From NCBI GenBank assembly GCA_029931885.1, contig JAOZRJ010000062.1, positions 1 through 6,439 on the forward strand: DNA of 6,439 bases, in the 5' to 3' direction. Shown here one piece after another: positions 1 to 6,439 of the stretch; within the stretch, counting starts at the first letter, position 1, and each line of letters starts with the position of its first letter. The translations under genes were made by a program, and so were the position numbers. The notes under the pieces were generated by a model. The model was not told the DNA's origin and made no database searches. It worked only from the letters and a program-made list of their open reading frames with translations. The DNA is from Candidatus Omnitrophota bacterium (GTDB lineage: Bacteria > Omnitrophota > Koll11 > Zapsychrales > Aceulaceae).

Positions 1-401
1 AAAATTGATCGGTTTTCTTCAGCATCAAAAACAAGTGGAAGATAGACGTTGCCGGAGTCATTGATGGCATTTGCAAAAACCTCATCATGGAAACTTGGCT
101 CTTGAAAAATAACATCAAAAATAATAGCCTTAGCCCCTTTTTCTTTAAGAACATCAACAAGGCTAGCATGAAAATCACGTGGCAGAGGCCATGTGCTTAA
201 ATTCTTTAGTGTGTCGTCGGAAATCTCAACAAAAACAACATTATCCATCATGTTTAATGTTGGACGCATTTTAAAACGCAAATCATAAAACATCAAATCA
301 GCGTTCTTAAAAAAACGAAAGTAAGAAAAACAAAAAACGATAATAAAGGCAAGGGCGAAAAACAAAATACGCCATGAAGGAAGATTTCTAAAAAATTTCA
401 T
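1..401 (-). CDS. CHASE2-domain membrane protein, 3' end missing
   Basis: This is the N-terminal 133 residues of a protein that runs off the left edge, so it has no stop codon here. Reading from the ATG at 401, a hydrophobic helix spans about residues 11-29. It is followed by a CHASE2-like extracytoplasmic sensor domain: YDLRFKMRP at 39-47, DNVVFVEISDD at 53-63, WPLPRDFHASLVDVL at 71-85, then KGAKAIIFDVIFQEPS at 88-103. This order matches the conserved start of CHASE2 (membrane helix, 'YDLRF.LRP', 'V.IDD.sL', 'WP.PR..HA.L', 'GAK.I.fDv.F.EP'). CHASE2 proteins normally continue through more membrane helices into an output domain such as an adenylate/guanylate cyclase, histidine kinase, diguanylate cyclase or SpoIIE-type phosphatase. 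Which output this one has lies outside the window. It follows the beta-barrel gene after three bases, with no good ribosome binding site, so coupled translation is likely. The domain call is firm; the ligand is unknown. Confidence 0.85.
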   Translation of the reverse strand, partial: MKFFRNLPSWRILFFALAFIIVFCFSYFRFFKNADLMFYDLRFKMRPTLNMMDNVVFVEISDDTLKNLSTWPLPRDFHASLVDVLKEKGAKAIIFDVIFQEPSFHDEVFANAINDSGNVYLPLVFDAEENRSI

Positions 402-404
402 GAA

Positions 405-1424
405 TTAAAAATTATACTGCCATCCGACGCGAAAAACATTATCAGCATATTTCTGCGTATAATCATTAGAGGAATTATCTCGAAACTCATACGAAACTGA
501 CACAATATTATTCTTACCAATCTTATACCTTAAACCAGTATTCATTTTATAAAGAATATCTCGTTGTTTGTAGGTATCATAAGTTACAGTTCGGGCTTTA
601 TAGTTCTTGCGTAAATACGTAAAATTGGCAAATAGCTGAGTTTTTTTGTTCAATTTATAATAAAGGCTTGGGTTTAAGCGATAACCCATATAATCATAAT
701 AATCAAGATAGATAGCATTGGAATCATTTCTTATAATACTCGCTTTTACTTGAAGAAATAATTTTTGAGTTAACACCGCTCCGATACTGTAAGTAAATGT
801 GCCTCTTTCGTCGTCAAGGTCCTTGTCTTGATAAGTGCTAATAGTATTGTCGAGAGCTTTCTTATCGGGATGAATCTTGAGGCCAGATTCCCAGGTAACT
901 TGATGATAAAAACCTTCAAACAAATAATCTCTAAAATAACAAAAGAATTTATGAAAAACAAACTGACTCTCCTTGTCGTTAGGATAATAGGAAGAGCTGA
1001 AATCATAACCTGTTGCAAATTGGAAACGCGATGTTTTTCGAAGAAATCCCAGCCTTAAATGATTTAAAATATTTGTCGCATCTGTTATTTCATTATAAGT
1101 CAGTGCATCTAAATCATAATTAAAAGTAAAATAAAGATTTTTACAGATAGGTTTAGAAATTCCTAATGAATAAATATACTCTTGAAAAATATCACCTTTT
1201 TTTGTTGATCCAAGATTAACATTATTATCATAACCTGTAAAAAAAGCTATCCGGCTTGTTATATCTAGCCCGAGACTAGGTTCTGCCAAAAGTTGTTCAA
1301 CCTGATCGCTGCGCTCTTGCTTTTCTTCATTAGACTGCGCTAAAGCTTGATCGATGAATAAAAAACATAAAAATAATATTGCTACAATAGATACAAAATA
1401 AATTTTTTTTCTTAATTTCCTCAT
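405..1424 (-). CDS. Outer-membrane beta-barrel protein (BBP2/porin-like)
   Basis: This 339-residue protein has a classic Sec signal peptide: basic MRKLRKK, a hydrophobic core to about residue 24, and an ALA-Q site suggesting cleavage after A29. A short charged linker (about 30-50) leads to a long region rich in alternating hydrophobic and polar residues, aromatic residues and Tyr/Asn turns (GYDNNVNLGS near 64-73, FTFNYDLDAL, QFATGYDFSSSYY, LFANFTYLRKNY, NIVSVSYEFRDNSS). The chain ends in QYNF. A terminal Phe with alternating hydrophobic residues is the usual BAM recognition signal, so outer-membrane insertion is well supported. The 'YDNNV' opening recalls putative beta-barrel porin families such as BBP2_2, but that family call is from memory of the pattern. 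The cargo or partner is unknown. It lies between the FecR and CHASE2 genes in the same operon; the ATG at 1424 is 14 bases after the FecR stop and has only a weak, distant AGG upstream. Confidence 0.85.
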   Translation of the reverse strand: MRKLRKKIYFVSIVAILFLCFLFIDQALAQSNEEKQERSDQVEQLLAEPSLGLDITSRIAFFTGYDNNVNLGSTKKGDIFQEYIYSLGISKPICKNLYFTFNYDLDALTYNEITDATNILNHLRLGFLRKTSRFQFATGYDFSSSYYPNDKESQFVFHKFFCYFRDYLFEGFYHQVTWESGLKIHPDKKALDNTISTYQDKDLDDERGTFTYSIGAVLTQKLFLQVKASIIRNDSNAIYLDYYDYMGYRLNPSLYYKLNKKTQLFANFTYLRKNYKARTVTYDTYKQRDILYKMNTGLRYKIGKNNIVSVSYEFRDNSSNDYTQKYADNVFRVGWQYNF

Positions 1425-1438
1425 TTTTAAATAATTAC

Positions 1439-2359
1439 CTACCCTTCAATCTCAAAACCATTATTTTCGTTGCCTTCATTATTGCCTTCATTCCCACACC
1501 CGTTTTGACTCTGACCTCCCTCCACTATTCTTCGAGCATCCTCATCATTAAGCTCTCTTAAATCCTCTTTTCTATTATCAGCTAAACTGCCTAAGTTTTC
1601 AAGCGCATCTCCGCCTATTTCCCAAAGAAAATCATCAATGCTTGCACTGCCTCCTTGCGGACCCTGTCCTCCATCTACACCTCCATCTGCACCTTTTTGC
1701 TCTAAAAGAACACTCGCTCTATTAGAAAATTTATCCCACCCTTCATAATCTCTATCTGTTAAAGGAAAACGATCACCAAAAAATCCATCAGGTCCGACAC
1801 CAAGACCAAAACCATTTTCCAGATCTTCTTCTTTAATAACTTTTCCATCTTTGCCAAGACCTTGAACAAAAACAGTTTCCTCAAAAACATGAACAGCAGT
1901 TTTCCCATCATGGCTTGTTACCCATCCTGTTCCGCGAGCTCCAGCAATTGCTACGGGAGTTCTCACCTGAAACTTCTCTTCATTTTCGATATTCTCAACT
2001 AAAGAAAAAACACGGCCTCGATTTAAAAATATATTTCCTGGTTTAATATTTTCAATTTTAAGTTGAGAGTTCTCCCCAACTGTTAAAACATTTTTCATCT
2101 TCTCATCAAATGCCAGCGTACAGCTTGAATCCATTTCTGTCTTAAGCTCTGCTTCTTTGTTTAAAAAAGTATTAATTTTTGCGCGAACCCAAGAAACATT
2201 TGTTTTCTCTCGAGCAAAAACGTTGCCTTGAATGTCAACAATCTTTGCAGTTTGCGCAAACAAAATTGTTGAATAAAAAACAACAATAAAGCAAAAACAA
2301 ACCGTTATTAATTTTTTCCATATTAATGATATTCTTTTCTGGCAAATATTATTTTTCAT
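1439..2359 (-). CDS. Secreted FecR-domain protein with Gly/Asn-rich tail
   Basis: This is a 306-residue exported protein. A long N-terminal region with a hydrophobic core at about 17-34 ends in LFA-QTAK, a plausible signal peptidase I site after A35. Next come 'AKIVDIQGNVFAREKT' (38-53) and a FecR domain at about 75-170 carrying the family signature TPVAIAGARGTGW at 134-146. There is no anti-sigma helix bundle before the membrane segment, so this is a stand-alone periplasmic or surface FecR protein and not a FecR-type anti-sigma factor. After about residue 222 the chain is low complexity: a Gly-rich patch (ADGGVDGGQGPQGG), an acidic helix-like stretch (about 240-280), then a Gly/Asn/Glu tail containing one Cys (C288). 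Two short DNA tandem repeats underlie the Gly patch and the tail. The ATG is one base after the mlaD stop and lacks a close Shine-Dalgarno (AAGGA is 14 bases away), suggesting reinitiation. FecR proteins often pair with CHASE2 and beta-barrel proteins, as here; the exact role is unknown. Confidence 0.85.
   Translation of the reverse strand: MKNNICQKRISLIWKKLITVCFCFIVVFYSTILFAQTAKIVDIQGNVFAREKTNVSWVRAKINTFLNKEAELKTEMDSSCTLAFDEKMKNVLTVGENSQLKIENIKPGNIFLNRGRVFSLVENIENEEKFQVRTPVAIAGARGTGWVTSHDGKTAVHVFEETVFVQGLGKDGKVIKEEDLENGFGLGVGPDGFFGDRFPLTDRDYEGWDKFSNRASVLLEQKGADGGVDGGQGPQGGSASIDDFLWEIGGDALENLGSLADNRKEDLRELNDEDARRIVEGGQSQNGCGNEGNNEGNENNGFEIEG
1470..1493 (-). repeat. 12-bp tandem repeat in FecR tail
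   Basis: Two adjacent copies of a 12-base unit (ttgccttcatta and ttgccttcattc on the plus strand) match at 11 of 12 positions. They encode the Asn-Glu-Gly-Asn-type repeat in the C-terminal tail of the FecR protein. The unit is a multiple of three, so copy number can change without a frameshift. Confidence 0.7.
1669..1692 (-). repeat. 12-bp tandem repeat in FecR Gly-rich linker
   Basis: Two adjacent 12-base units (ctccatctacac and ctccatctgcac on the plus strand) match at 11 of 12 positions and encode the ADGG-VDGG stretch after the FecR domain. Like the tail repeat, it preserves the reading frame. Confidence 0.7.
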
Positions 2360-2360
2360 T

Positions 2361-3032
2361 TTATTTTGTAGGATCCTTTGGTTTTTCTTTTGTTTTAAAT
2401 AAAATCTTCCAAGGATTTCGTCTTAAGTCATCACTAAACTCTTCAAAATTCTCAGAAGTTGTTTCAAAATTCTTAATAGCTTTGGCAAGGTTATCTCTAT
2501 TGTCAGAAAGCGTACCATCAAGATTAGCAAGAACTTGATCAAGATGCTTAATAGCATCTTTGACAGATTGCCTATTTTCTTCAACTACCGCATTTAAATT
2601 ACGTACAAAAACATCCAAATCCACATATTTCTGTCCGTTTAAAGTCGACCCTGGCGTTACAAACTCATTGCTGTTTGATGACTCAATCTGAACATATTTC
2701 TCACCCATCAACCCCATCATTTTAATAGATATTTCTGAATTCTCTCTAACCTTAGCTTTATTCTCCAGCCAAAGTTTTAATGTAATATGAGTTTTGTTTC
2801 CTTCGTAAGAAGGCTTAATGTCCTCGACCTTTCCAATTTCAAGACCATTAAGCATAACAGGAGCTTTTTTATCCATTCCCGCTGCTTCATCAAAAACGAC
2901 ATAAACAAAATACCCGCTGTCTTTATTGATACCCAACTTTCCTGTGCTATAAGTCATGTATGCTAAACCTAAAAGACAAGCCAGCACAAACAACCCAACC
3001 TTAAATTCATTTGTCCATTTATTCTTTTTCAT
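2361..3032 (-). CDS. mlaD: MlaD-like MCE-domain lipid transport protein
   Basis: This is a 223-residue inner-membrane-anchored periplasmic protein of the MCE family, the substrate-binding part of Mla-type lipid transporters, where MCE subunits form a hexameric ring over the permease. The order is a short basic start (MKKNKWTNEFKVG), one membrane helix at about 12-28, the MCE domain at about 41-119 (VVFDEAAGMDKKAPVMLNGLEIGKV, then IKMMGLMGEKYVQIESS), and a long helix-prone region at about 140-203 with heptad-like Leu/Ile/Val spacing. It ends in NPWKILFK, a tail seen in many MCE proteins of this kind. The length is above that of E. coli MlaD (about 183), because of the C-terminal helix. The start is supported by AAAGGGGAG at 3037-3045, four bases from the ATG. 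It follows mlaF after 25 bases. No mlaC or mlaA gene is visible in the window. Confidence 0.93.
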   Translation of the reverse strand: MKKNKWTNEFKVGLFVLACLLGLAYMTYSTGKLGINKDSGYFVYVVFDEAAGMDKKAPVMLNGLEIGKVEDIKPSYEGNKTHITLKLWLENKAKVRENSEISIKMMGLMGEKYVQIESSNSNEFVTPGSTLNGQKYVDLDVFVRNLNAVVEENRQSVKDAIKHLDQVLANLDGTLSDNRDNLAKAIKNFETTSENFEEFSDDLRRNPWKILFKTKEKPKDPTK

Positions 3033-3057: not shown

Positions 3058-3870
3058 TTATACAGCTAATATTCCTTCGGATTCTGTCTGTCCTTTAAAA
3101 AGATCTATTGGCCCATCTGGATTTCCTTTAATAAATTGCTGAATAAGAGGATTTTGTGAACTTTTAATCTCTTCAGGAGTTCCTATCTCAACAATCTTCC
3201 CTTGATGAATCATTGCAATACGATCAGCAATAGTAAAAACACTATGCATATCATGCGTAACTACAATTGAAGTGATCATAAGCTTCACGCTTAAATCTTT
3301 AATTAATTTATCTGTAATGCCTCCAACCACTGGATCAAGCCCCGAGGTGGGTTCATCATAAAAAACAATATCCGGATCAAGGGCAATAGCACGAGCCAAT
3401 CCCGCCCTTTTACGCATACCGCCAGAGAGCTCAGACGGATAATAACTTTCAAACCCTCGTAACCCCACAAGAGATAATTTCATTCTTATAATAATATCAA
3501 TAATCTCATCAGCCAATTTTGTATGCTCTCTTATAGGAAGAGCGACATTATCTTCAATTGTTAAAGAATCTAAAAGTGCAGAATACTGAAAAGACATTCC
3601 AATTGTTTTTTTGACATTATTTAATTCTTCATCAGAAATATTAGCAATATCTTTACCTTTAATAAAAATACCTCCTTTGTCAGGAGGAATTGCTCCTGTC
3701 ATATGCCTTAACAATGTACTTTTTCCTGAACCCGAACAACCCATAATAACAAAAGTCTCTCCGCACATAATATCTAACGAAACATCATCGATAATTTTTC
3801 TCCCCTGAAATGATTTTGTTACATTTCGAAGAGAAACAATTTTTTCACCATTACATTCTTTATCTAACAT
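3058..3870 (-). CDS. mlaF: MlaF-like ABC transporter ATPase
   Basis: This is a 270-residue cytoplasmic ATPase that should power the MlaE permease; the length matches E. coli MlaF (269). All ABC motifs are present: Walker A GCSGSGKST (44-52), Q-loop Q95 in FQYSALL, signature LSGGMRKRAGLARAIA (148-163), Walker B DIVFYDEPTSGLDP (167-180) with catalytic E173, and the switch histidine H206 in VVTHD. After the core fold a C-terminal extension contains QQFIKGNPDGPIDLF (244-258). This resembles the 'QFL.G.ADGPVPF' extension of MlaF proteins, which in E. coli reaches across the ATPase dimer next to the MlaB contact, so the Mla subtype is better supported than a general ABC label. The ATG at 3870 has AAGGA seven bases upstream. 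It starts 17 bases after the mlaE stop. Confidence 0.95.
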   Translation of the reverse strand: MLDKECNGEKIVSLRNVTKSFQGRKIIDDVSLDIMCGETFVIMGCSGSGKSTLLRHMTGAIPPDKGGIFIKGKDIANISDEELNNVKKTIGMSFQYSALLDSLTIEDNVALPIREHTKLADEIIDIIIRMKLSLVGLRGFESYYPSELSGGMRKRAGLARAIALDPDIVFYDEPTSGLDPVVGGITDKLIKDLSVKLMITSIVVTHDMHSVFTIADRIAMIHQGKIVEIGTPEEIKSSQNPLIQQFIKGNPDGPIDLFKGQTESEGILAV

Positions 3871-3877
3871 ATATTAA

Positions 3878-3882
3878 TCCTT
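3878..3882 (-). promoter_or_regulatory. Ribosome binding site of mlaF
   Basis: AAGGA on the minus strand lies seven bases before the mlaF ATG. It sits in a 12-base sequence, TTAAGGATTAAT (3873-3884), that is repeated exactly in the leader of the first gene of the operon (5423-5434). Confidence 0.75.
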
Positions 3883-3887
3883 AACTA

Positions 3888-4670
3888 TTAAGAAAAATAA
3901 AAAATCGCCGTCAAAAGACAATCTGCCGCAATAATAAGAGTAAAACTAATCACAACGCTTCGCGTAGTTGCCCGACCAACGCCTTCTGCGCCACCTTTTG
4001 TTGTTAATCCCTCATAACAACCAACGAGTGCGATTATAATACCGAAAACAACAGATTTTAAAATCCCAGTATAAATATCCTTTAATTCAAGATATTTAAA
4101 ACTAATTTGAATATACAGATCTGGGTTTATATTCATGCTTTCTGTTCCAATCAAAAATCCGCCAAAAATACCAGCAAGATCGCCTAAAATTGTTAATGCT
4201 GGCAACATTATTATAAGCGCCAAAAATCTTGGTACAGCTAAGAAGCCAACGGGATTAATCGCCATTGTTTCTAAAGCCTCTATTTGCTCTGTAACTTTCA
4301 TTGTTCCCAATTCAGCAGCAATTGCAGATCCTGCACGACCTGCAACAACCAAAGCTGTTAAAACTGGACCTAACTCTCGGCACAAAGAAACAGAAACAAG
4401 CGAGGCAACATATAGCTGAGCACCCATTTTCTGCAAAACATAAGCACTTTGCATCGCGAGAACAATACCTGTAAAAAGATCAACAAAAAAGACAATCACG
4501 ATAGAACAAAGGCCGACAAAAATCATTTGATGAATGATACCTTGCCGGCGAGATGCCTTACCAAGAAATGGACCGACAAAAATCCAATAAATAATTTTTA
4601 TAAAAAGAGAAAATATTCCTCTGGCCCATTGAGCGTATTCAATAACAAATCTGCCTAAAAAACTAATCAT
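3888..4670 (-). CDS. mlaE: MlaE-like ABC transporter permease
   Basis: This is a 260-residue integral inner-membrane permease of the MlaE family (usual length about 260). A membrane-associated N-terminal helix (about 1-35, with IFSLFIKIIYWIFVGPFLG) is followed by helices at about 48-72, 150-175, 202-218 and 236-257. The family signature, REL at 98-100 then GPVLTALVVAGRAGSAIAAELG (101-122) and KVTEQIEALETMAINP (125-140), is intact; this region includes the segment that contacts the ATPase. Its role is to pass lipid between the inner membrane and the MlaD ring. The ATG shares its A with the TAA of the STAS gene (TAATG), so the two are translationally coupled, and AAAGGA six bases upstream supports the start. 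The gene order STAS-mlaE-mlaF-mlaD is compatible with an Mla operon whose MlaB-like protein is encoded first. Direction of transport cannot be told from sequence. Confidence 0.95.
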   Translation of the reverse strand: MISFLGRFVIEYAQWARGIFSLFIKIIYWIFVGPFLGKASRRQGIIHQMIFVGLCSIVIVFFVDLFTGIVLAMQSAYVLQKMGAQLYVASLVSVSLCRELGPVLTALVVAGRAGSAIAAELGTMKVTEQIEALETMAINPVGFLAVPRFLALIIMLPALTILGDLAGIFGGFLIGTESMNINPDLYIQISFKYLELKDIYTGILKSVVFGIIIALVGCYEGLTTKGGAEGVGRATTRSVVISFTLIIAADCLLTAIFYFS

Positions 4671-5002
4671 TAAAAATCCTTTATGGCTTCTTCTTTGGAA
4701 TTATAAATCTTAAAAAGTTTATCTAATTTTGTAATCTCAAAAAGACTTTTTACCTTCTCATCCATCTGACTTAATTTAAGGTCTCCTTCGACTTTTTTAA
4801 GTCGTTGAAACATTTCAATCAATGTTGCTAATCCGGAACTATCAATATATGAAACTGATGCCAAATCAACAACTACCTTTTTCTCATCTTGAGAAATAAG
4901 CGCATCAAATGCCTTTCTCAACTCGGGCGAATTATTAATATTTACTTCGCCTGTGATTGCACAAATTGCAACATCTGAACTTTTTTCAATTTTAATGTTC
5001 AC
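4670..5002 (-). CDS. STAS-domain protein (anti-anti-sigma / MlaB-like)
   Basis: This 110-residue soluble protein is a single STAS domain. VAICAITGEVNINNSPELRKAF at 11-32 gives the first strands and helix, KKVVVDLASVSYIDSSGLATL at 41-61 the core, and VKSLFEITKLDKLFKIYNS at 84-102 the C-terminal part. In SpoIIAA and RsbV the 'DSSG' or 'DSTG' loop carries the serine phosphorylated by the partner kinase; by alignment that is S55 here (D54-S55-S56-G57). The start is GTG at 5002, supported by AAGGAG seven bases upstream, and the gene overlaps the kinase gene by 11 bases. Two roles are possible: a phospho-switch anti-anti-sigma factor, as the adjacent kinase suggests, or an MlaB subunit that binds MlaF, as the coupling to mlaE suggests. 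E. coli MlaB has a functionally important Thr in the same loop. A dual role is inference. Confidence 0.9.
   Translation of the reverse strand: MNIKIEKSSDVAICAITGEVNINNSPELRKAFDALISQDEKKVVVDLASVSYIDSSGLATLIEMFQRLKKVEGDLKLSQMDEKVKSLFEITKLDKLFKIYNSKEEAIKDF
4677..4682 (-). promoter_or_regulatory. Ribosome binding site of mlaE
   Basis: AAAGGA on the minus strand lies six bases before the mlaE ATG, inside the last codons of the STAS gene. It allows direct initiation in addition to TAATG stop-start coupling. Confidence 0.75.
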
Positions 5003-5411
5003 AATGATTCTCCTTGCCTAAAAATTTTATCATCTTTATTCCACGCCCTTTATCAAAAAATTTAACTTTATCCATCTTCCTCTTTATCAAAAAAACACCT
5101 CTACCTGAAAGTTTATTTAAATTTTTTTCTTCCGTCGGATCTTCGAGTTCTTGATCATTAAATCCCTGACCTTCATCTATAATATTAATTTCTAAGAATT
5201 CATCTGAGATCTCAATGTCCAACTGAACCTTTAGTTCAGAATTTAACTTATTGCCATGCTTTACGGCATTTACCAAGGCCTCTTGAATACAAAGCCGTAC
5301 CTGAAAAAGATCCTGCTCTGATTTAACTTTTTCTTTGATTTGCCTCATGACATCATCAATGCATTTCGGCAAATCATCCAAACGTGAAGGAAAAACTTTT
5401 GAAACTTTCAT
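4992..5411 (-). CDS. RsbW/SpoIIAB-like serine kinase (anti-sigma type)
   Basis: This 139-residue soluble GHKL ATPase is of the short HATPase_c_2 type used in partner switching. It has the N-box EALVNAVKHGN (44-54), with E44 in the position of the catalytic base and N48 the Mg-ATP ligand, G1 box DEGQGF (79-84), and G2 box SGRGVFLIK (102-110). It has no histidine phospho-acceptor domain and no membrane segment, so it is a free protein kinase of the RsbW/SpoIIAB/BtrW class. Its expected substrate is the DSSG serine of the overlapping STAS protein. It is the first gene of the minus-strand operon; its last codons overlap the STAS start by 11 bases. The ATG at 5411 is the only standard start after the in-frame stop upstream, but its best Shine-Dalgarno, AAGGA at 5428-5432, is 16 bases away. 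No sigma factor gene lies in the window, so 'anti-sigma factor' names the family and not a shown function. Confidence 0.9.
   Translation of the reverse strand: MKVSKVFPSRLDDLPKCIDDVMRQIKEKVKSEQDLFQVRLCIQEALVNAVKHGNKLNSELKVQLDIEISDEFLEINIIDEGQGFNDQELEDPTEEKNLNKLSGRGVFLIKRKMDKVKFFDKGRGIKMIKFLGKENHCEH
5010..5015 (-). promoter_or_regulatory. Ribosome binding site fixing the GTG start of the STAS gene
   Basis: AAGGAG on the minus strand ends seven bases before GTG at 5002-5000, inside the end of the kinase gene. This is the strongest ribosome binding site in the window, and it supports GTG as the true start. It suggests the STAS protein may be made in excess of the kinase. Confidence 0.8.
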
Positions 5412-5427
5412 TCGCGAGATAGATTAA

Positions 5428-5432
5428 TCCTT
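5428..5432 (-). promoter_or_regulatory. Shine-Dalgarno-like site in the operon leader, oddly distant
   Basis: AAGGA lies 16 bases before the kinase ATG, outside the usual 5-10 base range. In the same 12-base context before mlaF the ATG is seven bases from AAGGA; here that position holds ATC, in frame with the kinase. Confidence 0.45.
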
Positions 5433-5462
5433 AATATATTTTCACTTAATTGGTGCGATTTC

Positions 5463-5491
5463 ATTATATAGATATCCATATATAATATCAA
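5463..5491 (-). promoter_or_regulatory. Sigma-70-type promoter of the kinase-STAS-mla operon
   Basis: The minus strand reads TTGATA (5491-5486, five of six to the -35 consensus), a 17-base spacer, and TATAAT (5468-5463, perfect -10). Transcription should start near 5456, giving a leader of about 45 bases before the kinase ATG. The intergenic DNA is very AT-rich, which makes chance -10 matches common, but a near-consensus pair at exactly 17 bases is convincing. With no clear terminator or large gap downstream, this promoter may serve all eight genes. Confidence 0.75.
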
Positions 5492-5540
5492 GAAATAAAC
5501 AGTTTAGAGTAAATCTCCTTAAAATATTATTTTACAACCA

Positions 5541-5569
5541 AATGTTTGAATTTTTTAATCCCAAACGTT
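5541..5569. repeat. Imperfect inverted repeat over the phosphatase promoter
   Basis: Arms AATGTTTG (5541-5548) and CAAACGTT (5562-5569) are inverted copies matching at seven of eight positions with a 13-base centre. They cover the -35 element and touch the first base of the -10 element of the plus-strand promoter. This could be an operator for a dimeric regulator, but chance cannot be excluded. Confidence 0.35.
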
Positions 5570-5574
5570 ATACT
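5546..5574 (+). promoter_or_regulatory. Sigma-70-type promoter of the phosphatase gene
   Basis: TTGAAT (5546-5551, four of six) and TATACT (5569-5574, five of six) are separated by exactly 17 bases. The expected transcription start, six to eight bases after the -10, falls at about 5580-5582, on the ATG at 5581. No Shine-Dalgarno lies before that ATG, which fits a leaderless transcript. Confidence 0.6.
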
Positions 5575-5580
5575 AAACAT

Positions 5581-6439
5581 ATGTTGTTATCTAAAAAAAT
5601 TAAAAATATTCTCAAAATCAATAAAATTCCAGAAGCCTATTTAAACGAATTCACACAAGGGCAAATTACCCTTATCAAGGCCCGGATTCAACTTTCTTGT
5701 CTTTTAGCGATTATGTTTTATATAGGCTCTACTGCTATTGATTTTCTTTTATCTCCAGCAACAACCAAAAAAGAATTTCGCTCTGAAGAAATTTCTCTTT
5801 TCATTCTTTTTGTCATCATAAGTATCTTTATTCGATGGACAATTCAACGCGTCCATACAATTAATGCCTGCAAAAACTGTGCTTATGTTTTTATTTTATT
5901 TGCTTTAACAATTATCACCATTATTAGCTTATTTTATCCACAATACATCGACCTTACCTCGACGCTATATATGTTTATTTTCTTTATGATTTCTTTTACA
6001 ATTCCATGGGATCCTGTTGAAATTATCTTTGTCTCATTATTGCATGTAGGTGCTTATGGTTTCTTGTTTTGGTTTGTTCAAGTATCCATGCCAGAATATA
6101 TTCGGCTCGATTTTAATTTTCCTGTATACCTTTCAGGCACAACACTCCTTTTTATGTCTGCGGCCCTTGTTTTTATTTTGAGAAAGAAAGAGTCCGAACG
6201 TGATATGGAAAACTTTATTTTACTAAAAGATGTAGAAAAAAAGAATGAACAGATGCAAAAAGAACTACAAATCGCAACACGTGTTCACAAAACTCTTGTT
6301 CCAAAATCAATGAATACCGACTTAGCAGACATTGCGGTTTTGTATCTTCCGATGCATTATATCGGCGGAGATTATGCGCGCTTTCATTTTGTTGACAAAG
6401 ATAAACTAATTTTTATTATTTGCGACGTTACCGGTCACG
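5581..6439 (+). CDS. Six-helix membrane SpoIIE/RsbU-type protein phosphatase, 3' end missing
   Basis: An open frame of 286 codons continues past the right edge. After a basic cytoplasmic start come six likely membrane helices at about residues 36-57, 70-87, 99-118, 127-142, 145-168 and 182-200. A charged, coiled-coil-like linker (about 201-235) leads to ELQIATRVHKTLVPKSM (228-244), the usual entry to SpoIIE/RsbU phosphatase domains ('EL..A..iQ..LlP'). The catalytic domain begins with YIGGDYARF (260-268) and IICDVTGH (279-286); D264 and D282 correspond to metal-binding aspartates of PP2C-type enzymes. The rest of the domain lies outside. Expected role: removing phosphate from the STAS protein's serine in response to a membrane signal. 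It is divergent from the kinase-STAS operon. The start is uncertain: an in-frame ATG at 5542 would add 13 residues, but neither ATG has a Shine-Dalgarno, and the promoter at 5546-5574 favours 5581. Confidence 0.88.
   Translation, partial: MLLSKKIKNILKINKIPEAYLNEFTQGQITLIKARIQLSCLLAIMFYIGSTAIDFLLSPATTKKEFRSEEISLFILFVIISIFIRWTIQRVHTINACKNCAYVFILFALTIITIISLFYPQYIDLTSTLYMFIFFMISFTIPWDPVEIIFVSLLHVGAYGFLFWFVQVSMPEYIRLDFNFPVYLSGTTLLFMSAALVFILRKKESERDMENFILLKDVEKKNEQMQKELQIATRVHKTLVPKSMNTDLADIAVLYLPMHYIGGDYARFHFVDKDKLIFIICDVTGH

What the first reader, a model, noticed from the sequence alone, without database searches (positions are those of the whole stretch)
3058..6439. Phospho-switch apparently wired to a lipid transporter instead of a sigma factor
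Seen: an RsbW-like kinase gene overlaps a STAS gene with an intact DSSG serine loop, which is stop-start coupled (TAATG) to mlaE and followed by mlaF and mlaD; a SpoIIE-type phosphatase gene is divergent. Known: Mla systems use a STAS protein (MlaB) that binds the ATPase MlaF, and partner switches use kinase/phosphatase control of a STAS serine. Inference: one STAS protein serves both roles, so phosphorylation of S55 by the kinase would release or block it from MlaF and tune lipid transport, with the membrane phosphatase reversing this. That would be post-translational control of an Mla transporter by partner switching.
Basis: partly seen in the sequence, partly recalled or inferred. Interest (0 to 1): 0.7.

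Follow-up and report, generated by a model that had tools for sequence, protein, structure and literature searches.

The report
Phospho-switch operon for lipid transporter
Genes for a serine kinase, its likely target protein and phosphatases sit in one operon with a lipid-transport machine of the bacterial envelope, which suggests that the machine is turned on and off by phosphorylation.

Summary
Window 5411 to 3 (minus strand) is one tight operon: RsbW-like kinase, STAS protein with the SpoIIAA-type serine (S55), mlaE, mlaF, mlaD, FecR, likely beta-barrel, and a cut-off CHASE2 gene whose full-length relatives end in a SpoIIE phosphatase. The host is probably Omnitrophota.

The arrangement recurs: kinase-STAS-mlaE in 63 of 193 drawn Omnitrophota genomes, at 24 of 30 examined Planctomycetota STAS loci, and at 1 of 20 Acidobacteriota loci. 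In 23 of 24 genomes the STAS-paired kinase is the only match to its family above 34 bits. In four of these 24 the operon STAS is the only STAS found, so no second MlaB is visible. No SigB/F/G-type sigma factor exceeded the curated cut-off in 193 genomes.

MlaF proteins of these operons usually carry the C-terminal motif that in E. coli docks at the MlaF-MlaB interface (49 of 58, against 0 of 47 from loci without a STAS gene; the window's own copy lacks it). MlaB phosphorylation was proposed for E. coli in 2016 and 2020; I found no report showing it.

Best reading: the STAS protein is both MlaB and kinase substrate, and phosphorylation of S55 switches lipid transport.

The parts
4992..5411 (-). 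RsbW/SpoIIAB-like serine kinase (anti-sigma-type, HATPase_c_2)
   Evidence: PF13581 7.5e-22; AF2 model pLDDT 91 matches RsbW 6m37 and SpoIIAB 1tid/1til; E44 and N48 invariant in 70 of 70 operon kinases
4670..5002 (-). STAS protein, proposed MlaB and kinase substrate; phosphosite candidate S55 at the N-terminus of helix 55-70
   Evidence: PF01740 4.4e-23; TIGR00377 over cut-off; S55 aligns with the phosphoserine of SpoIIAA; model pLDDT 95
4835..4840 (-). codons for S55-S56 of the STAS protein (candidate phosphosite)
   Evidence: read from the sequence; Ser in 69 of 70 and Thr in 1 of 70 operon STAS proteins at S55
3888..4670 (-). MlaE lipid ABC permease
   Evidence: PF02405 7e-80, TIGR00056 over cut-off
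3058..3870 (-). MlaF ATPase with C-terminal extension (GNPDGPIDLFKGQTESEGILAV)
   Evidence: best PDB matches are MlaF-type ATPases, among them 7ch8 (P. aeruginosa MlaF) and 6xbd (MlaF)
2361..3032 (-). MlaD (MCE domain)
   Evidence: PF02470 1.9e-18
1439..2359 (-). FecR-domain protein, probably exported (hydrophobic N-terminus, read by eye)
   Evidence: PF04773 2.2e-09; found between mlaD and the likely beta-barrel gene in several relatives
405..1424 (-). likely outer-membrane beta-barrel
   Evidence: no Pfam hit itself; the relative L001:11897-12913 has sub-threshold matches OMP_b-brl 2e-05 and BBP2_2 0.00014
3..401 (-). N-terminus of a CHASE2 sensor; full-length relatives are CHASE2-SpoIIE phosphatases
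   Evidence: PF05226 4.4e-22; L001, L007 and L009 relatives carry PF05226 plus PF07228
5542..6439 (+). divergent SpoIIE-type phosphatase, probably a membrane protein, cut by the window end
   Evidence: relative L176:5662-7026 (246 bits) is PF07228 3.2e-41 and lies co-directionally just upstream of the kinase there
5463..5491 (-). sigma-70-like promoter match upstream of the kinase, TTGATA-17-TATAAT, 11 of 12
   Evidence: 5 sites found in the region against 1.6 expected; a consensus match only

Best explanation
The operon encodes an MlaFED lipid transporter together with its own partner switch. The STAS protein acts as MlaB: unphosphorylated, it binds MlaF through the face around helix 2 and allows the transporter to assemble and work. 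The RsbW-like kinase binds the same face and phosphorylates S55, which removes STAS from MlaF and lowers transport. SpoIIE phosphatases (the CHASE2-type one at the end of the operon, and the divergent one) dephosphorylate STAS in response to envelope signals and restore transport. Shown by sequence: gene content, order, conservation, catalytic residues, predicted fold. Taken from E. coli work: MlaB binds MlaF by this face, and a phosphomimetic at the matching residue weakens binding. Inferred: phosphorylation of this STAS, its direction, and the signal.
For: Kinase-STAS-mlaE in 61 fetched Omnitrophota genomes plus G001 and G008, 63 of 193 drawn (models rebuilt). All 79 STAS matches of 83 bits or more in that draw were inspected: 65 lie directly before mlaE, and 63 of these have the kinase directly upstream; of the two exceptions one lies at a contig edge. 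Order kept at 11 of 12 loci with weakly matching kinases (L219-L230, 46-69 bits against A1). Same order at 24 of 30 Planctomycetota STAS loci and, preceded by a phosphatase domain, at 1 of 20 Acidobacteriota loci. STAS-paired kinase is the only PF13581 match above 34 bits in 23 of 24 genomes. Single STAS protein in 4 of 24 genomes. S55 Ser/Thr in 70 of 70 and kinase E44/N48 in 70 of 70; the matching RsbW Glu49 contacts RsbV Ser56 (PMC7340262 passages). MlaF tail motif Y[LI]..[LI] 49 of 58 in these operons, 0 of 47 from loci without a STAS gene (tail not located in 1 and 4 of them), aligned without gaps to E. coli MlaF through Tyr261, which docks at the MlaF-MlaB interface (PMC7367683). Helix-2 motif ATxxE after DSSG 91 of 96 beside mlaE, 9 of 42 elsewhere (biased sample). 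In L007 and L012, where the kinase has its own second STAS, the mlaE-side STAS keeps both serine and motif.
Against: No biochemical data. The window's own MlaF tail lacks the Y[LI]..[LI] motif, as do 9 of the 58 operon copies counted and the MlaF of the STAS-mlaE loci of G007 and G012 (tails GPIQVS and GPIQMS). By sequence the STAS is RsbV-like: it passes TIGR00377 but not the MlaB equivalog (32.1 against 90 bits). A Ser/Thr at this place is also kept in E. coli MlaB, for which no phosphorylation is shown, so S55 alone proves nothing. E. coli MlaB T52A keeps binding but loses ATPase activity, which does not fit a simple on/off switch (PMC5016091). Nine drawn genomes have kinase-STAS without adjacent mlaE, only one of them (G005) at a contig end, so the module can serve other outputs. 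One genome (G095) has STAS-mlaE with no adjacent kinase. Six lone STAS genes have neither neighbour. Every one of the 193 genomes has a generic sigma-70 match and most have two or more.
Confidence: 0.7

Rival explanations
1. The kinase, STAS and phosphatases form an ordinary partner switch for a sigma factor or another unlinked target and are merely co-transcribed with mla genes. MlaFED would work without MlaB, as the STAS-less paralog clusters presumably do.
For: All 193 genomes hold sigma-70 matches, many of about 270-295 aa besides RpoD-sized ones. Kinase-STAS-CHASE2 loci without mlaE exist. STAS-less mlaEFD clusters exist in the same genomes.
Against: 0 of 193 genomes pass the SigBFG cut-off, and genomes without a kinase match at 1e-8, such as G131, G092 and G121, hold the smaller sigma factors too. 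Linkage to mlaE recurs in three phyla. The MlaF of the kinase-STAS operons usually has the MlaB-docking tail and that of STAS-less loci does not.
Confidence: 0.15
2. The STAS protein is a constitutive MlaB and also a substrate, but phosphorylation regulates the kinase or another partner, or activates rather than inhibits the transporter.
For: T52A in E. coli separates binding from ATPase activity (PMC5016091). The kinase may sequester STAS without phosphorylating it.
Against: The phosphomimetic T52E lowers MlaF binding in E. coli, and the authors expect steric and electrostatic repulsion from a phosphate there (PMC7367683).
Confidence: 0.12
3. The neighbourhood is inherited together but the kinase has decayed in function.
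For: Some operon kinases are divergent (46-69 bits against A1).
Against: E44 and N48 invariant in 70 of 70, G103 and G105 invariant, D79 in 68 of 70.
Confidence: 0.03

Closest known systems
E. coli MlaFEDB with MlaB (STAS)
   Same: mlaE, mlaF, mlaD and a STAS protein in one operon; MlaF with a GPxxF C-terminal extension; Ser/Thr at the same STAS position
   Different: E. coli has no kinase or phosphatase in the operon (recalled) and MlaB is a shorter STAS (PMC7367683); here the STAS is RsbV-like with a fifth strand and a C-terminal helix, and no mlaC was recognised among the window's nine ORFs scanned
B. subtilis SpoIIAA-SpoIIAB-SpoIIE and RsbV-RsbW-RsbU/P partner switches
   Same: kinase, STAS and SpoIIE-type phosphatase; active-site Glu and target Ser conserved; folds match
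   Different: lipid transporter genes stand where the sigma-factor gene would be
Partner switches with non-sigma outputs (SypA-SypE of Vibrio fischeri; SiaB-SiaC of Pseudomonas)
   Same: a STAS or STAS-like protein controlled by an RsbW-like kinase with an output other than a sigma factor
   Different: outputs are biofilm control and a diguanylate cyclase (the latter recalled), not an ABC transporter. SypA-SypE seen as search listings and starts of abstracts only; SiaB-SiaC seen as a PDB title
Leptospira LvrC (9qih; chain named SenB)
   Same: closest solved kinase fold
   Different: titled a response regulator; no link to Mla seen (title and chain name only)

Membership tests
Mla/MCE lipid ABC transporter | MlaE permease | tested here: met
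   PF02405 7e-80, TIGR00056 258.6 against 212.2
Mla/MCE lipid ABC transporter | MlaF ATPase and MCE-domain MlaD in the same operon | tested here: met
   best PDB matches are MlaF-type; PF02470 1.9e-18. The stricter NF008809 and TIGR04430 equivalog cut-offs were not reached
MlaB | NCBIfam MlaB equivalog NF033618 | tested here: not met
   32.1 bits against 90
MlaB | STAS protein encoded with mlaFED | tested here: met
MlaB | binding to MlaF | not testable with these tools
   no complex prediction offered; indirect support only
RsbW/SpoIIAB kinase | HATPase_c_2 fold with catalytic Glu and N-box Asn | tested here: met
RsbW/SpoIIAB kinase | curated equivalogs for RsbW or SpoIIAB | tested here: not met
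   53.9 against 145, 46.4 against 155.05, 41.5 against 135 bits
Partner switch | STAS antagonist with phosphorylatable Ser at the SpoIIAA position | tested here: met
Partner switch | cognate SpoIIE/PP2C phosphatase gene | tested here: met
   CHASE2-SpoIIE in relatives, divergent SpoIIE relative; both window copies are cut, and activity on STAS was not tested
Partner switch for a sigma factor | SigB/F/G-type sigma factor in the genome | tested here: inconclusive
   0 of 193 Omnitrophota genomes over the TIGR02980 cut-off, but generic sigma-70 matches in all; the window's own genome is not held
Partner switch | phosphorylation of STAS by the kinase | not testable with these tools
   needs biochemistry

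The most novel reading that the evidence does not exclude
This is a self-contained, post-translational control loop for envelope lipid traffic, widespread in Omnitrophota and Planctomycetota. A CHASE2 phosphatase reads the periplasm, the kinase sets the opposite bias, and the STAS protein carries the phosphate state directly onto the MlaF ATPase, with no sigma factor and no transcription step. To my knowledge it would be the first ABC transporter run by partner switching, and it would explain why MlaB has a STAS fold.
Probability: 0.5. Interest if true: 0.87.

Novelty: new variant of a known kind. Interest (0 to 1): 0.74.

Why it matters
Why MlaB is a STAS protein, and whether it is phosphorylated, was left open in the E. 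coli papers of 2016 and 2020. Here the missing kinase and phosphatases appear to be encoded beside the transporter, in a gene order kept across phyla. That gives concrete protein pairs for testing phospho-control of an ABC transporter and of outer-membrane lipid balance.

Tried and rejected
Sigma-factor target: looked for with TIGR02980; none over cut-off, but generic sigma-70 hits in all genomes, so weakened and not excluded. Second MlaB elsewhere: looked for with PF01740 in 24 genomes and PF13466 in 10 of them; one STAS only in four genomes, further STAS proteins in the other 20 of 24. S55 conservation as proof: dropped, because E. coli MlaB keeps Thr there without a known kinase. MlaB did not appear among the 50 VIA-align rows shown for the STAS model, which is no evidence against a shared fold. 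The STAS flags printed were wrong (a length filter hid the STAS genes); the count was redone. A paper with deep mutational scanning of Mla (PMC10245069, term search of its text) mentions neither Thr52 nor phosphorylation.

Limits of the counts: genomes are drafts and no completeness was given. One search kept the best 80 of 498 confirmed candidates. The rows were capped. Kinase and STAS models were rebuilt with fetched loci, so later scores are not independent; one search used the original models. Loci were picked by kinase, STAS or MlaE hits, so one search is biased, and its sequences are related, so its Fisher value is not a clean probability and I do not rely on it. The MlaF tail contrast compares paralog subfamilies and may reflect few events; the 47 include L096, whose MlaE seems to carry a fused STAS part (read by eye), and L091 and L095, whose genomes keep a STAS gene elsewhere. 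Six Planctomycetota loci counted 'noKIN' include five (L365, L366, L371, L372, L377) where one search shows the kinase, hidden by an over-long ORF. L380 is counted among the 24 of 30 although about 0.9 kb lies between STAS and mlaE; of 66 Planctomycetota genomes with a STAS match, 30 were examined. Phylum names for the draws follow the names of the records L043 and L058. In one search some loci seemed to lack STAS or MlaE because of ORF overlaps; one search used all ORFs. Paper searches: 20 of 94 listed; 0; 15 of 390; 20 of 288; 5 of 5; 7 of 7; 3 of 3; 10 of 70; no listed title or abstract start names a kinase or phosphatase encoded with Mla genes. Only openly licensed papers are held.
Full report
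What is there. Seven complete genes from 5411 down to 405, and the cut CHASE2 gene at 3-401, lie on the minus strand with overlaps or gaps under 30 nt: kinase, STAS, mlaE, mlaF, mlaD, FecR, likely beta-barrel, CHASE2. The STAS gene overlaps the kinase gene by 11 nt and shares TAATG with mlaE. A promoter-like match (TTGATA-17-TATAAT) lies upstream of the kinase. A divergent gene at 5542 starts a probable membrane protein that reaches the first SpoIIE phosphatase motif before the window ends. Protein relatives that bear a source name are Omnitrophota, including Candidatus Aceula, as are the closest named loci.

The operon in relatives. A scan with the kinase alignment gave 80 named loci, the best of 498 confirmed candidates. 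In Omnitrophota loci such as L001, L003 and L008 the full order is kinase-STAS-mlaE-mlaF-mlaD-FecR-barrel-CHASE2. The CHASE2 proteins of L001, L007 and L009 end in a SpoIIE phosphatase domain, so the window's cut CHASE2 gene is most likely a phosphatase gene too. In L176 a relative of the window's divergent phosphatase lies directly upstream of the kinase in the same direction. The module thus has one kinase and up to two phosphatases.

How common. In a draw of 193 Omnitrophota genomes, kinase matches at 1e-8 occur in 81 and MlaE in 188. I fetched 90 regions, chosen around kinase or STAS matches; with L001 and L008 they cover all 79 STAS matches of 83 bits or more. Kinase-STAS-mlaE is contiguous in 61 of the fetched genomes (models rebuilt), and in G001 and G008 (L001 and L008), giving 63 of 193. 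In one search nine further STAS genes sit with a kinase without mlaE (one, G005, at a contig end), six sit with neither, and two sit before mlaE without a kinase, one of these at a contig edge. A phosphatase or CHASE2 match lies in 39 of the 61 fetched regions; several regions are cut by contig ends. The 12 loci L219-L230 have kinases that score only 46-69 bits against A1, and 11 of them show the same order. In Planctomycetota (246 genomes, 66 with a STAS match at 1e-16) I looked at the best locus of 30 genomes: 24 show kinase-STAS-mlaE. In Acidobacteriota (247 genomes, 187 with a match) 1 of 20 loci does, preceded by a phosphatase domain.

Is the STAS protein the only candidate? In 24 genomes (20 of them with kinase-STAS-mlaE), the STAS-paired kinase is the only PF13581 match above 34 bits in 23; G083 has a second in an 800-residue frame. 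G023, G035, G039 and G043 have exactly one STAS match by PF01740 and by PF13466, the operon's own; the other 20 of 24 have two or more PF01740 matches. In 193 genomes none passes the SigBFG cut-off, while one of 14 control genomes does. Every genome has a generic sigma-70 match, so a sigma target is not excluded.

MlaF side. In E. coli, helix 2 of MlaB is the centre of the MlaF interface, Thr52 lies near its middle, T52E weakens binding, and the MlaF tail places Tyr261, Leu265 and Leu266 between MlaF and MlaB (PMC7367683: sections 7 and 9 read, other passages seen). T52A keeps the complex but abolishes ATPase activity (PMC5016091 passages). MlaF tails of the kinase-STAS-mlaE operons carry Y[LI]..[LI] in 49 of 58, against 0 of 47 MlaF proteins from loci without a STAS gene (the tail could not be located in 1 and 4 of them). 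An Omnitrophota tail aligns without gaps to the E. coli MlaF chain up to residue 263, which includes Tyr261 but not the two leucines. The window's own tail lacks the motif, and so do the MlaF tails of the STAS-mlaE loci of G007 and G012, so for the window itself the link rests on family evidence. After DSSG, helix 2 reads ATxxE in 91 of 96 STAS proteins beside mlaE and in 9 of 42 others (biased and related sample). In Acidobacteriota the one STAS beside mlaE has it, and the 19 other loci have GE-type motifs. In L007 and L012 a second STAS sits by the kinase while the mlaE-side STAS keeps S and ATxxE.

Mechanism. The same face of STAS would serve kinase and MlaF, so binding should be exclusive, and a phosphate at S55 should break both contacts. 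Kinase activity would lower transport and phosphatase activity would raise it. CHASE2, usually an extracytoplasmic sensor (recalled), suggests an envelope signal. The steps from phosphorylation onward are inference.

Novelty. The E. coli authors proposed MlaB phosphorylation and called its regulation an open question. Eight searches of the held library (long lists were capped) showed no title or abstract start linking an RsbW-type kinase or SpoIIE phosphatase to Mla genes. Both halves are known kinds; their combination in one operon appears undescribed in what I could search. I therefore file it as a new variant of a known kind.

Noticed in passing
L355:6662-8768 (genome of L079, 'bacterium isolate RI_54'): A protein that reads as a receiver domain fused to an RsbW-like kinase lies directly upstream of mlaE-mlaF-mlaD, without a STAS gene: perhaps another phospho-input to an Mla transporter.
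   Followed up: partly
L091:805-2154 and L095:1474-2652 (G011, G010): A stand-alone protein that reads as a response-regulator receiver sits just before mlaE, while the genome's kinase-STAS-CHASE2 phosphatase set lies elsewhere.
   Followed up: partly
L001:14863-15636: The gene after the CHASE2 phosphatase encodes an ion-channel domain protein (PF07885); similar-sized genes with similar ends follow at the same place in L003, L006 and L008.
   Followed up: no
L007, L010, L011, L012: In these Omnitrophota a CHASE2 phosphatase-kinase-STAS set lies next to what looks like another ABC transporter (type not tested).
   Followed up: no
L294-L297: Lone STAS genes with DSLG in place of DSSG, near neither kinase nor mlaE.
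   Followed up: no
G182:C26:1489574-1489876: A kinase-like match (59.5 bits) falls inside an open frame of 29,111 codons, an apparent giant gene.
   Followed up: no
L081, L099, L101, L141-L170 and similar: Many Omnitrophota have a second mlaEFD cluster without STAS, with shorter MlaF tails, mostly of the GPIT type.
   Followed up: partly
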